This document shows, piece after piece, positions 8,696 through 19,684 of a stretch of DNA of 37,705 bases. Each line of letters opens with the position of its first letter. The stretch's first letter is position 1. The notes beneath the pieces are model-generated. The model ran no database searches and was not told the origin of the DNA. It saw only the letters and a program-made list of their open reading frames with translations. The position numbers and the translations under genes were made by a program. The stretch is from Lachnospiraceae bacterium (GTDB taxonomy: Bacteria; Bacillota; Clostridia; Lachnospirales; Lachnospiraceae), in contig JAJQIL010000128.1 of NCBI GenBank assembly GCA_021199235.1, positions 1 to 37,705 of the forward strand, written 5' to 3'.

Positions 8696-9466
8696 ATGTA
8701 CAGGTTACTTATGGTTTGCGTGTCAGCCGGTATTGCGGCGGGACTGGGTACCGGATTCGCCGGGATGTCAGCGACGACGGCGATCGTGCCGATGCTGGTG
8801 ACATTTCTCGGAGTCCCGTGGTATGAGGCGGTAGGCATCGGGCTGGCTTCCGATGTGCTTGCCTCTGCGTGCTCCGCTTATGTTTATAAGAAGAATGACA
8901 ATCTGGATATTAAGCACGGAATGATGATGGTAGCGGCGGTGCTGCTCATGACCATTCTGGGAAGTTATTTTTCACAATATATGCCGGATCTGGAGATGGG
9001 ACGTCTGTCCGTCGTATTTACGACTTTTCTGGGGCTTCGTTTTATTCTCTTTCCTGCAACAAAGCAGGCAGAGCTTGGTCTCTTTATTCCAGAGAAATAT
9101 CGCCCGCGGCTCTCTGTGATCTGCGGAGTTGTGATCGGATTTTACTGCGGATTTATGGGGCTGGGCGGCGGAATGATGATGCTGTTTATCCTGACGACGA
9201 TTCTCCGCTATGATCTGAAGACAGCGGTCGGGACAAGCGTTTTTGTAATGACTTTCATTGCGTTTACCGGTGCCGTCTCGCATTTTTATTTCGGAGATGT
9301 TGTAAATTATATTCCGGCATTGGTGATCTGCGTTGTGTCTACTCTGATTGCCGCACTGGTCTCCGCGGCAATATCGAACCATCTGAAAGACAAGACGACG
9401 AACCGTGTGACTGGAGTCGTGCTGTTTGGGCTGGGGCTGATGATGCTGTGGGAGTCGTTCCTGTAG
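8696..9466 (+). CDS. TauE/SafE-family sulfite/anion exporter
   Basis: This 256-residue membrane protein has about eight helices in two similar halves, the layout of the TauE/SafE family (PF01925). Diagnostic parts are the N-terminal Gly-Leu-Gly-Thr-Gly-Phe-Ala-Gly-Met-Ser and the mid-protein Gly-Phe-Met-Gly-Leu-Gly-Gly-Gly-Met-Met. Members export sulfite, sulfoacetate or other organic sulfur anions. GAAGGATAAAATTTT precedes the ATG at 8696. The TAG stop at 9464-9466 is the first base triplet of the palindromic element that follows, so the gene end may have been rewritten by that insertion. Sulfotransferase and sulfate-activation genes lie close by, which supports a link to sulfur anions, but its substrate is not visible. 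Confidence 0.9.
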   Translation: MYRLLMVCVSAGIAAGLGTGFAGMSATTAIVPMLVTFLGVPWYEAVGIGLASDVLASACSAYVYKKNDNLDIKHGMMMVAAVLLMTILGSYFSQYMPDLEMGRLSVVFTTFLGLRFILFPATKQAELGLFIPEKYRPRLSVICGVVIGFYCGFMGLGGGMMMLFILTTILRYDLKTAVGTSVFVMTFIAFTGAVSHFYFGDVVNYIPALVICVVSTLIAALVSAAISNHLKDKTTNRVTGVVLFGLGLMMLWESFL

Positions 9467-9507
9467 CGCCGATGAAACGCGAAGCGTTTTTTACATCATC
9501 GGCGCTA
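9464..9507. repeat. Nested palindromic element, intergenic copy
   Basis: TAGCGCCGATGA at 9464-9475 and TCATCGGCGCTA at 9496-9507 are perfect 12-bp arms. Touching the left arm is the inner hairpin AACGC-GAA-GCGTT (9476-9488), then a T-rich spacer. The core is nearly identical to 11484-11525 inside the HD gene. The following bases to about 9543 match the rest of that element, including CTGCCG and GGCGTTT. Confidence 0.85.
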
Positions 9508-9727
9508 ACTGCCGCCGGTGCTGCCTGCCAGTGGCAGGCGTTTAGCACCGACCGGAGCGGTAGCGGAGACGGAGCGAGGGCGCTGATCGTCCAGTGGACG
9601 GTGCTGAACATCCAGTGGATGTTCGCTTAGCACCGACCGTAGCGAAGCGGAGACGTTTAGCGCCGACCGAAGCGGAGCGGAGAGTGCTTCCATTAGCGCC
9701 GAGTGAAGCGGAGAGCGCTTTTAGAAT
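9508..9727. repeat. Cluster of nested hairpin modules
   Basis: The block holds two units with the same outer arms CGGTGCT/AGCACCG (9516-9522/9544-9550 and 9599-9605/9629-9635) enclosing different inner palindromes around CCAGTGG: GCCTGCCAGTGGCAGGC at 9523-9539 and GAACATCCAGTGGATGTTC at 9606-9624. A third, CGTCCAGTGGACG, is at 9588-9600. Four degenerate copies of TTAGCRCCGA followed by AGCGGAG start near 9542, 9627, 9657 and 9693. Stem sequences differ but always pair. Open frames on either strand here are by-products. Confidence 0.8.
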
Positions 9728-10895: not shown

Positions 10896-11570
10896 TTAAT
10901 CCGGCCGGATGTTTCCGGCTTCCACATTCGGCTCGATAAAATGTTCCCGCGAATAGTTCCAGAGCGTTTCGGAACCTTTCGCGGTATTTTTATTCCGGTT
11001 CAGTATCTGGCTAAGATGCACACCTTTTTCACTCCAGGATTTTCCGCCTGCTGCCGCGTTCAGCATGGCGGGTTGGATGTTGTCCATTGTACGGGCAAAT
11101 TTCGCTTCCGCGGTTTCTTCTGCCTCGAATTCATCCCAGAGCGCGCGCATTTTTGCACCCTGATCCGGCGGAAGCAGGCCAAACAGACGTTCGGCAGCTG
11201 CAAGTTCCCGCTGCCGCTGCGTTTTTTTCCCTTCTTCGTCGTAGGCGTATGTATCCCCCGCGTCAATCTCCACGACATCGTGGATTAGCAGCATACTGAT
11301 GGTCTTAAGCACATCAATTTTTTCGTTGGCGTATTCACTCAGGATCAGAGTCATGACCGCCATATGCCAGGCATGCTCCGCGTCATTTTCTTTTCTTGCG
11401 CCGTCAGACAGATACGTCTGACGCCCGATATTTTTTTCTTTATCCATTTCGAGGCAGAAGTCAAACTGCTGTTGGATTCTATTAGCGCCGATGAAACGCA
11501 AAGCGTTTTTAGCATCATCGGCGCGATCTGCCGACGAGCCAAGCGAGGGGGCGTTTCTATTGCTTTCCAT
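10896..11570 (-). CDS. HD-domain phosphohydrolase with palindromic insert
   Basis: The 224-residue protein carries an HD metal site: His66 and His69 in Glu-His-Ala-Trp-His-Met, then His97-Asp98 in Leu-Leu-Ile-His-Asp-Val-Val-Glu-Ile-Asp-Ala-Gly-Asp-Thr. This matches the HD_3/YfbR-like group, some members of which are 5'-deoxynucleotidases. The N terminus is anomalous: residues about 6-31 (Asn-Ala-Pro-Ser ... Phe-Ile-Gly-Ala-Asn-Arg) are encoded by a 71-bp palindromic element plus a 7-bp duplicated target. Removing 78 bp gives Met-Glu-Ser-Asn-Arg-Ile-Gln-Gln-Gln-Phe, a normal start for this family. AAAGGA lies about 10 bases before the ATG. The 5' region holds another structured block. Confidence 0.88.
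   Translation of the reverse strand: MESNRNAPSLGSSADRADDAKNALRFIGANRIQQQFDFCLEMDKEKNIGRQTYLSDGARKENDAEHAWHMAVMTLILSEYANEKIDVLKTISMLLIHDVVEIDAGDTYAYDEEGKKTQRQRELAAAERLFGLLPPDQGAKMRALWDEFEAEETAEAKFARTMDNIQPAMLNAAAGGKSWSEKGVHLSQILNRNKNTAKGSETLWNYSREHFIEPNVEAGNIRPD
11477..11561 (-). mobile_element. In-frame palindromic element with 7-bp target repeats
   Basis: The 71-bp element at 11484-11554 is flanked by TTCTATT at 11477-11483 and 11555-11561 (AATAGAA in the reading direction), exactly 78 bp apart. Its core is the nested palindrome GCGCCGATGA ... TCATCGGCGC with inner hairpin AACGC-AAA-GCGTT; the remainder has CTGCCGACGAGCC and GAGGGGGCG. It encodes 26 extra residues without breaking the frame. 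Confidence 0.8.
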
Positions 11571-18721: not shown

Positions 18722-19684
18722 ATGTCACAGGCAAGTGATACGGTAAGAAGAGAGTTTAAAAGGGGTGATGATATCCGGGACGCGGGGCTGACCACACCGG
18801 AGGATGTGCAGCGCTTTGACGACATCTGCTATGGAGACGATGCCAGCTGGCAGGTGCTGGATGTCTATCGGCCGAAAGAAAAAGCAGGAGAAGTCCTGCC
18901 GGTGATCATCAGCGTCCACGGCGGCGGCTGGGTATACGGAGACAAGGAGAGGTATCAGTATTACTGCATGAGTCTGGCCCAGAGAGGATTTGCGGTGGTG
19001 AATTTTACGTACCGCCTCGCGCCGGAGTTCAAGTTCCCGGCAAGCCAGGAAGACACCAATCTGGTGGTGAGCTGGGTGCTTTCTCATGCGGAAGAATATG
19101 GGATGGATGCGGAGCATGTATTTATGGTAGGAGACTCTGCGGGAGCACATGGGACCGGCCTTTATGCCGCCATCTGCACAAATCCGGAGTATGCCGCTCA
19201 GTTTCCGTTTACAGTGCCGGAAGGATTCCGTCCCACAGCGATCGCTCTGAATTGCGGCACGTACTCGATAGCGGACAGGTCGGCTTCTGATGGAAATGCC
19301 CCCTCACATACGTTCGGCGGCAGGACGAAGCCGCCGATGAAATCGCTTCGCGATGAGGCGGCTTCTGACGGCCTGACCATGACGCTGATGGAGGATCTGT
19401 TTGAGGACGGAGCCACAGAGGAAAATCTGGAAAAGATCTGTGTCCTGAACTACATCACGGAGAATTATGTGCCGACTTATTTCATGACCTGCACCGGAGA
19501 TTTTCTCAAGCCGCAGGCGCCGCTTCTTTTCAATAAGCTTATGGAATGCAATGTACCCTGCGAGTTCCAGTTTTACGGGGACAGGGATCATGAACTGGGG
19601 CATGTCTTCCATTGCAATATGAAGCTGGAGATCGCCGCGAAATGCAATGACGCGCAGTGTGAGTTTTTCCGGAAGTTTCTGTAA
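18722..19684 (+). CDS. Alpha/beta hydrolase (esterase-like) with palindromic insert
   Basis: The 320-residue protein has the alpha/beta hydrolase fold of the hormone-sensitive lipase type: oxyanion His66-Gly-Gly-Gly69 and nucleophile Ser139 in Gly-Asp-Ser-Ala-Gly; Asp-His near the C terminus (Asp-Arg-Asp-His-Glu) supplies the histidine. No signal peptide. Lying between a GH3 and a GH43 gene it may remove acetyl or other ester groups from plant glycans, by inference. The start at 18722 is backed by AAAGGAG. Residues about 192-217 (Asn-Ala-Pro-Ser ... Ala-Ser-Asp-Gly) come from a 71-bp palindromic element with a 7-bp near-duplication, in a surface-like region after the fifth strand. It probably forms an operon with the GH43 gene 56 bp downstream. 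Confidence 0.88.
   Translation: MSQASDTVRREFKRGDDIRDAGLTTPEDVQRFDDICYGDDASWQVLDVYRPKEKAGEVLPVIISVHGGGWVYGDKERYQYYCMSLAQRGFAVVNFTYRLAPEFKFPASQEDTNLVVSWVLSHAEEYGMDAEHVFMVGDSAGAHGTGLYAAICTNPEYAAQFPFTVPEGFRPTAIALNCGTYSIADRSASDGNAPSHTFGGRTKPPMKSLRDEAASDGLTMTLMEDLFEDGATEENLEKICVLNYITENYVPTYFMTCTGDFLKPQAPLLFNKLMECNVPCEFQFYGDRDHELGHVFHCNMKLEIAAKCNDAQCEFFRKFL
19287..19371 (+). mobile_element. In-frame palindromic element, second coding copy
   Basis: The 71-bp element at 19294-19364 lies between CTGATGG (19287-19293) and CTGACGG (19365-19371), again exactly 78 bp apart. Like the HD copy it opens with AATGCCCCCTC, has CGGCAG near the middle, and ends in a nested palindrome: outer GAAGCCGCC/GGCGGCTTC, inner ATCGC-TTC-GCGAT. 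Arm sequences differ from the HD copy yet still pair. Confidence 0.7.

What the first reader, a model, noticed from the sequence alone, without database searches (positions are those of the whole stretch)
11477..11561. Palindromic element inserted in frame into a housekeeping-type HD gene, with target duplication
A 71-bp nested palindrome sits between two copies of TTCTATT exactly 78 bp apart. The insertion adds 26 codons after Met-Glu-Ser-Asn-Arg and keeps the frame; deletion restores a normal family N terminus. Rickettsia palindromic elements are the known parallel for repeats that live inside proteins; I know of no described equivalent in Clostridia, though I cannot search. The element encodes no transposase, so it must move in trans.
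Basis: partly seen in the sequence, partly recalled or inferred. Interest (0 to 1): 0.9.

Follow-up and report, generated by a model that had tools for sequence, protein, structure and literature searches.

The report
Mobile hairpin repeat inside bacterial proteins
A short hairpin-forming DNA repeat, catalogued until now as a small RNA, has inserted itself in frame into many ordinary protein genes of a Clostridia genome, typically adding about 26 amino acids.

Summary
11481-11562 is a copy of Rfam RF02987 (GA-cis, 43.3 bits). The genome holds 71 matches, 52 above cut-off. A relative at 91-93% DNA identity has the empty site (MESNRIRQQ); none of 102 HD-gene loci carries the insert. Sixteen further copies of 70 are missing or shorter in relatives; 15 of 17 net differences are multiples of 3. 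45 of 61 copies lie inside long open frames, with Pfam matches such as MutL, PriA and ALAD; by one looser criterion 51 of 63 here against 0 of 47 in other genera. The outer stem is hypervariable yet paired: 50 distinct 8-mers in 62 copies. Stems look inherited: the focal stem equals that of a copy 2 kb away, and same-contig stems are closer (p 0.0002-0.0006).

The 7-bp duplication is not a family trait. The mover is unknown; Y1 transposase and reverse transcriptase were not found in several copy-rich genomes.

Verdict: a REP/RPE-like mobile palindrome of Lachnospiraceae, filed so far as an RNA.

The parts
11481..11562 (+). Focal copy of the repeat (RF02987 GA-cis, full-length match, 43.3 bits), antisense to the HD gene
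11485..11524 (.). Outer stem GCGCCGATGA / TCATCGGCGC with inner hairpin AACGC-AAA-GCGTT (11495-11507)
   Evidence: covariation over 30 copies
11530..11552 (+). Second hairpin (GCC..GGC), conserved 3' half of the element, followed by the conserved end (TTTCC in most copies, TTTCT here)
   Evidence: position counted by hand
11477..11483 (.). Left copy of TTCTATT
11555..11561 (.). Right copy of TTCTATT; its TTC overlaps the conserved element end
10896..11570 (-). Host gene: HD-domain hydrolase (Pfam HD_3, weaker YfbR-like 5'-deoxynucleotidase match), 224 aa; the element encodes residues 5-30
9464..9517 (+). Truncated sister copy with the same 10-bp outer stem as the focal copy, at the 3' end of a TauE/SafE gene; a copy at the corresponding place is present in G008
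19288..19369 (-). Second full copy in the window, in frame inside an alpha/beta hydrolase (336 aa, insert at residues 206-231 within the domain match 62-276)

Best explanation
The 78-bp insert is a recent insertion of a small, non-autonomous, hairpin-forming mobile repeat (Rfam GA-cis) of the REP/RPE type, common in one Lachnospiraceae genus. SHOWN: copies are present or absent at orthologous sites; they add one unit of usually 75 or 78 bp (72-81; 114-117 with a nested 39-bp repeat), mostly a multiple of three; most lie in frame in ordinary genes; the focal copy shares its stem with a neighbour 2 kb away, and stems on one contig are more alike, which indicates local copying. INFERRED: the unit moves as DNA and is recognised by the shape of its hairpins rather than by stem sequence, so the stem can drift as long as both arms match. 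Insertion is supplied in trans by an unidentified enzyme or by host replication and repair. Genes tolerate it because the usual unit is a multiple of three and its GC-rich composition leaves most frames free of stops, so it adds a short peptide (often ETPPRCASAADR..ENASR..A) in a permissive loop, linker or terminus. In the HD gene it adds 26 residues right after MESN, ahead of the HD domain.
For: Copies. Focal empty site; 0 of 102 HD loci filled. Sixteen of 70 other copies absent or shorter, fifteen against G008 and one against G014, with matching flanks (copy 56 is an array contraction, not a clean empty site). Net lengths: 15 of 17 sites with the focal one are multiples of 3; the two exceptions are 76 bp. 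In-frame hosts: 45 of 61 copies; with a looser rule applied alike, 51 of 63 here and 0 of 47 in other genera. 27 of 30 host proteins scanned (of 45) have Pfam matches, and in some the match spans or is split at the insert, e.g. L038, L059, L065. Tandem in-frame units at 78-bp period in a G021 open frame. Stem: 479 Watson-Crick, 9 GU, 8 mismatched of 496 pairs; covariation 0.460 against 0.130 in shuffles, 14 of 21 pairs changed on both sides. Stem clustering on contigs: p 0.0002 with the hand-added neighbour, 0.0006 without it and 0.0002 for pairs 2 kb or more apart.
Against: No mover was found. Y1_Tnp occurs in 9 of 11 copy-rich (two of them only fragments) and 9 of 20 copy-free genomes of the genus sample, and in none of five with 1-8 copies; it was not found in copy-rich G013 and G031 or in G188, G201, G226, G238. 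RVT_1 was not found in G013, G021, G142, G188, G201, G226, but in 7 of 10 copy-free genomes. No general target-site duplication. Seven copies shared with G008 differ at 13 of 574 positions against 44 of 700 in the adjoining 50 bp, which could mean selection for a function. Frames not used by the gene are open as often as in shuffles (0.696 against 0.687). Gain rather than loss was shown with outgroups only for the focal site. All genomes are drafts, so absences are soft.
Confidence: 0.82

Rival explanations
1. GA-cis is what Rfam calls it, a functional structured small RNA or cis-regulatory RNA, and the intragenic copies are antisense or cis RNAs rather than mobile DNA.
For: Rfam entry and strand; strong covariation; in other genera 0 of 47 sampled copies lie inside a long open frame, 29 of 47 have a Shine-Dalgarno-like motif just downstream (0.196 in random windows) and 24 of 47 have one followed by a start codon (0.100 in random windows); copies shared with G008 are conserved above their flanks; in G000 33 of 45 genic copies are antisense.
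Against: Presence/absence at orthologous sites; tandem arrays; only 9 GU pairs among 496; no evident shared pathway among host genes; 12 of 45 genic copies are in the sense orientation.
Confidence: 0.1
2. Non-autonomous element of the IS200/IS605 / RAYT (Y1 HUH transposase) system, i.e. a true REP: single-stranded hairpin ends, no target duplication, insertion next to a short fixed target.
For: Hairpins towards both ends, no terminal inverted repeats, no general duplication; left flank prefers T-C (34 and 33 of 62), resembling the element's own end TTTCC; Y1 more frequent in copy-rich genomes of the genus (9 of 11 against 9 of 20).
Against: No Y1 found in copy-rich G013 (100% complete), G031, G188, G201, G226, G238; no element within any of the 20 Y1 loci scanned; GTAG at the 5' end in only 1 of 63 G000 and 3 of 47 other copies.
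Confidence: 0.2
3. The hairpin arms are taken from, or chosen to match, the target: the 5' arm is a target duplication and the 3' arm is copied from it, so each insertion acquires a new stem.
For: 11 of 63 G000 copies and 12 of 32 copies of other genera share 8 or more nt between their own 5' end and their own right flank, against 2.8% and 12% for mismatched pairs. Without the six array-like copies G000 still shows a small excess (mean 4.79 against 4.46, p 0.011, 5 of 57 with 8 or more).
Against: The focal copy shares its stem with the neighbour 2 kb away; six of the 11 G000 cases are matches of about 20 nt or more that look like truncated tandem units; most of the 16 polymorphic sites show no long match.
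Confidence: 0.1
4. Assembly or contamination artefact.
For: Host and relatives are draft, MAG-like assemblies.
Against: The family is above cut-off in 15 of 36 genomes of the genus sample and 14 of 200 of the family sample, own genome included in both; flanks align to relatives on both sides.
Confidence: 0.01

Closest known systems
Rickettsia palindromic elements (RPE)
   Same: Short palindromic repeats inserted in frame into many unrelated protein genes (from PMC10969869 and PMC3733652 passages); no transposase inside the element.
   Different: Sequences were not compared. This one is usually 75-78 bp with two hairpins and a hypervariable outer stem, in Lachnospiraceae. RPEs are given as about 150 bp in PMC10969869; the intragenic RPE-4/RPE-6 are placed among CGTC-tagged repeats, with A-T at the first two stem positions, in PMC3733652.
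GTAG- and CGTC-tagged REP elements (PMC3733652)
   Same: Palindromes in many copies, some inside DNA repair genes such as UvrD/Rep helicase and recBCD; stems with complementary changes; no dedicated transposase known for the CGTC group.
   Different: No GTAG tag; the CGTC motif is only partly there (its complement GACG in the stretch after the outer stem in 14 of 63 G000 copies and 34 of 47 of other genera); stem mostly starts G-C, not A-T; the phyla that the paper lists do not include Firmicutes.
Rfam RF02987 GA-cis RNA
   Same: Same sequence and structure family; focal copy full length above cut-off.
   Different: Rfam types it as an sRNA gene; here it behaves as mobile DNA inside coding sequence, mostly antisense.
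MITEs
   Same: Small, non-autonomous, multicopy, no gene of their own.
   Different: No terminal inverted repeats and no general target duplication.

Membership tests
Rfam RF02987 GA-cis | Full-length match above the curated gathering score | tested here: met
   43.3 against 34.7 bits, model 1-88 of 88
Rfam RF02987 GA-cis | Acts as a transcribed sRNA | not testable with these tools
   No transcriptome available
Rickettsia palindromic element (as a lifestyle) | Palindrome inserted in frame in several unrelated genes, empty in relatives | tested here: met
Rickettsia palindromic element (as a family) | Sequence kinship with a described RPE family | not tested
   RPE sequences were not compared; no kinship is claimed
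GTAG REP | GTAG tetranucleotide at one end of the palindrome | tested here: not met
   At the 5' end 1 of 63 (G000) and 3 of 47 (others); complement at the 3' end 4 of 63 and 2 of 47
CGTC REP | CGTC (or TGTC, CCTC) at one end, stem of 8-9 bp starting with A-T pairs, short tail, mostly CCA | tested here: inconclusive
   GACG after the stem in 14 of 63 (G000) and 34 of 47 (other genera) copies; first stem pair is G-C in 56 of 62 copies, so the A-T feature is not met; variants TGTC, CCTC and the tail were not tested
IS200/IS605 or RAYT-mobilised element | A Y1 transposase gene in carrying genomes | tested here: not met
   Not found in copy-rich G013 and G031 and G188, G201, G226, G238; draft genomes
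MITE | Terminal inverted repeats and target-site duplication | tested here: not met

The most novel reading that the evidence does not exclude
GA-cis is a DNA transposable hairpin, not an RNA gene: a lineage of Lachnospiraceae mobile elements recognised by hairpin shape, whose outer stem works as an inherited barcode that drifts while the two arms stay complementary. The same family has two lifestyles: outside genes, often beside Shine-Dalgarno-like sequences, in the other genera sampled, and in frame inside proteins in one genus. Its mobilisation route uses neither a Y1 transposase nor a reverse transcriptase, and joins an element junction of the form TTTCC-NN-AG to partly similar targets.
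Probability: 0.4. Interest if true: 0.82.

Novelty: new variant of a known kind. Interest (0 to 1): 0.7.

Why it matters
If right, a catalogued 'small RNA' family is really mobile DNA, so its covariation reflects palindrome maintenance and not RNA function; other orphan RNA families found by covariation may deserve the same check. It extends the RPE phenomenon (selfish DNA that builds itself into proteins) to Clostridia, with dozens of copies per genome, shared and empty sites between near relatives, tandem in-frame arrays, and a stem barcode that may let parent and daughter copies be traced. It makes an old question testable: how such repeats move without a transposase of their own, and how proteins like MutL or PriA tolerate them.

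Tried and rejected
Target-site duplication as a family rule: rejected. Stop-codon avoidance as an adaptation to coding: rejected, same as dinucleotide shuffles. Replication-strand targeting: in G000 43 of 63 copies lie on the C-rich strand, but in G008 17 of 30; inconsistent and confounded with gene direction, so not claimed. Preference for flanking hairpins: weak (perfect stem of 6 or more in 0.079 of left and of right flanks against 0.037 of controls), not pursued. Y1 transposase and reverse transcriptase as the mover: not found in several copy-rich genomes, though Y1 is somewhat commoner in copy-rich genomes of the genus. Virus carriage: one strict degenerate pattern gave 0 matches in viral contigs, weak evidence. 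A master element with an ORF inside: none noticed by eye in half-element scans of 1.49 Mb of G008, a bit over a third of that genome.

Rows dropped: 70 of the 71 matches were extracted; the partial match C125:3855-3884 was not extracted separately. Frame counts use 61 copies (25.5 bits or more, length up to 86). Stem counts use 62 of 63 copies of 25.5 bits or more (copy 42 not parsed). The flank test uses 62. The alignment uses 30 of 60 eligible copies, which I chose from the longer length class, not all of it. One search drops 15 of 47 copies of other genera that sit in shared larger repeats; its 'no arrays' line in fact dropped none, so I repeated it without six array-like copies. Shared-copy divergence uses 7 loci, leaving out pairs 24, 27, 50, 56, 65, 67 and loci of genomes other than G008. 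The neighbour copy was added by hand; one search repeats the test without it.

Full report
What was checked. The window is contig C34 of a 3.47 Mb, 161-contig genome. The closest loci with public titles are Lachnospiraceae or Clostridiales MAGs. The finding's features are present as described: direct repeat TTCTATT at 11477-11483 and 11555-11561, and perfect 10-nt arms 11485-11494 and 11515-11524. The strand folds better than most shuffles (z -2.44 as DNA; -2.09 for the other strand as RNA).

What it is. The stretch 11481-11562 is a full-length match to Rfam RF02987, GA-cis (43.3 bits, cut-off 34.7). Rfam types it as an sRNA gene. From memory, not from a call, the family came from a 2017 survey of intergenic structured RNAs; that paper was not held. 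The own genome has 71 matches at E up to 1, of which 52 are above cut-off; of 14 control genomes 4 ring weakly and none is above cut-off. The genus sample has it above cut-off in 15 of 36 genomes, the family sample in 14 of 200 and the class sample in 4 of 291, all four in the same family; each sample includes the own genome.

Empty sites. In G008 the HD gene reads ATGGAAAGCAATCGAATCCGGCAG; here the same start is followed by the insert. I take G008 to be MAG U.6_1 (JAJQHQ010000042.1), because contig length 47,255 and the printed start region agree. Flanking DNA is 91-93% identical. None of 102 HD loci, some of them duplicates, has an element within 150 nt of the HD core. Flanks of 70 copies were compared with 1.49 Mb of G008 and the other loci then held. 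Sixteen copies are absent or shorter in the relative: fifteen against G008, one (copy 16) against a G014 locus. Copy 56 is a contraction of an array rather than a clean empty site. Net differences, with the focal site, are 78 (x7), 75 (x4), 72, 81, 114, 117 and 76 (x2): 15 of 17 are multiples of three. Most other copies had no informative relative in the fetched sequence.

Inside proteins. 45 of 61 copies lie in an open frame of at least 200 codons that is at least 1.5 times longer than any alternative. Of these, 33 are antisense to the Rfam strand and 21 use one frame, giving peptides like VETPPRCASAADRS.DSENASR.AA. Of 30 of these 45 host proteins scanned, 27 match Pfam. Among them are MutL (DNA_mis_repair, MutL_C), PriA, a UvrD-type helicase, NAD_synthase, a PurL-like protein (AIRS_C, FGAR-AT linker), ALAD, a RibF-like protein (Flavokinase, FAD_syn), Peptidase_M32, an AsnC-type regulator and an SbcC-like protein. 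In G021 three near-identical 26-codon units stand in tandem in one open frame and two more, near-identical to each other, further on. Frames not used by genes are open as often as in shuffles, so there is no sign that the element is tuned for coding beyond its unit length.

The stem. Over 62 copies the outer stem has 50 distinct 8-mers, with 479 Watson-Crick, 9 GU and 8 mismatched pairs. On 30 aligned copies 14 of 21 pairs change on both sides, with covariation score 0.460 against 0.130 in shuffles and at most 0.071 when slid. The rarity of GU pairs suggests maintenance at DNA level; this is inference. In 37 of 60 copies the inner loop is C-GNA-G, which I recall, without a call, as an unusually stable DNA mini-hairpin. 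The focal stem GCGCCGATGA is shared with the truncated copy at 9464-9517, which has a counterpart in G008, and with C54:25578. Stems on the same contig differ at 3.31 of 9 positions against 4.60 on different contigs (p 0.0002; without the hand-added neighbour p 0.0006, and p 0.0002 for pairs at least 2 kb apart). The simplest reading is that the focal copy is a local daughter of the neighbour's ancestor.

The ends. Across copies the conserved unit runs from AG to TTTCC (76 bp in the usual class), and net insertions are most often 78. Two bases are either duplicated or belong to the element; the data do not decide. Left flanks prefer T-C. A minority of copies share 8 or more nt between their own start and their right flank (11 of 63; 12 of 32 in other genera). 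Six of the 11 look like truncated tandem units; without them a small excess remains (p 0.011).

Other genera. Of 47 copies read in nine other genomes of the family, none lies inside an open frame of 150 codons with 20 or more on each side, against 51 of 63 in G000 by the same rule with 700-bp flanks. 29 of 47 have a GAGG, AGGAG or GGAGG motif in the 34 nt from the element end (random windows 0.196), and 24 of 47 have such a motif followed 4-12 nt later by a start codon (random 0.100). Some of the 29, such as five G201 copies, share one larger repeat and are not independent.

What moves it. Unknown. Y1_Tnp is in 9 of 11 copy-rich (20 or more matches) and 9 of 20 copy-free genomes of the genus sample, and in none of the five with 1-8 copies; in G000 and G015 the match is a fragment. 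It was not found in copy-rich G013 and G031 or in G188, G201, G226 and G238; G142, G111, G165 and G173 have it. RVT_1 was not found in copy-rich G013, G021, G142, G188, G201 and G226, and was found in 7 of 10 copy-free genomes tested. No element lies in the 20 Y1 loci scanned.

Possible function. Seven copies shared with G008 differ at 13 of 574 positions against 44 of 700 in the adjoining 50 bp on each side. That hints at constraint, or at a lower or repair-corrected mutation rate in palindromes; seven loci are few.

Literature. Within the held library 'GA-cis' and 'RF02987' were found only in PMC11701678, where the passage read is a table row. RPEs are described in PMC10969869 and PMC3733652 (passages, plus section 15 and part 1 of section 4 of the latter). 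[quoted passage not shown] these may deserve the same test. Searches for an intragenic palindromic element in Clostridia or Firmicutes returned no such report in the listings seen; most subscription papers are not held, and PMC2996958 (coding palindromic amphipathic repeats) was seen in listings only.

Noticed in passing
window 9464-9640: Truncated GA-cis copy joined to a second repeat family (GTCCAGTGGACGGTGCTGAACATCCAGTGGATGTTCGCTTAGCACCGACC...), right at the stop of the TauE/SafE gene. A 10-nt core motif of it occurs 26 times in 1.49 Mb of G008; about 11 would be expected by equal-base chance (my arithmetic), so the count alone is weak, but similar sequence also joins several other GA-cis copies.
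   Followed up: partly
L267:9980-10150, L276:11060-11230 and about 20 other G008 places: A third repeat of about 140 bp whose central hairpin resembles the inner GA-cis hairpin with variable complementary arms. Its 26-nt 3' motif occurs 34 times in 1.49 Mb of G008 and not in the window.
   Followed up: partly
G000 C23:122845-122966, C59:11374-11492; L314:2396-2535: A 39-bp palindromic repeat (CTCGCCGGGTGGCATCC...GGGATATCC) nested inside the second hairpin of GA-cis copies; its length again keeps the frame.
   Followed up: partly
L348-L354 (G142) and L368-L373 (G201): GA-cis cores embedded in larger repeats with near-identical outer flanks, present in several copies.
   Followed up: no
L138, L359, L361-L364 (G188): These copies carry AGGAGGAACCATCATG, i.e. 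a ribosome-binding-like site and ATG with a very short frame, so they might act as upstream leaders.
   Followed up: no
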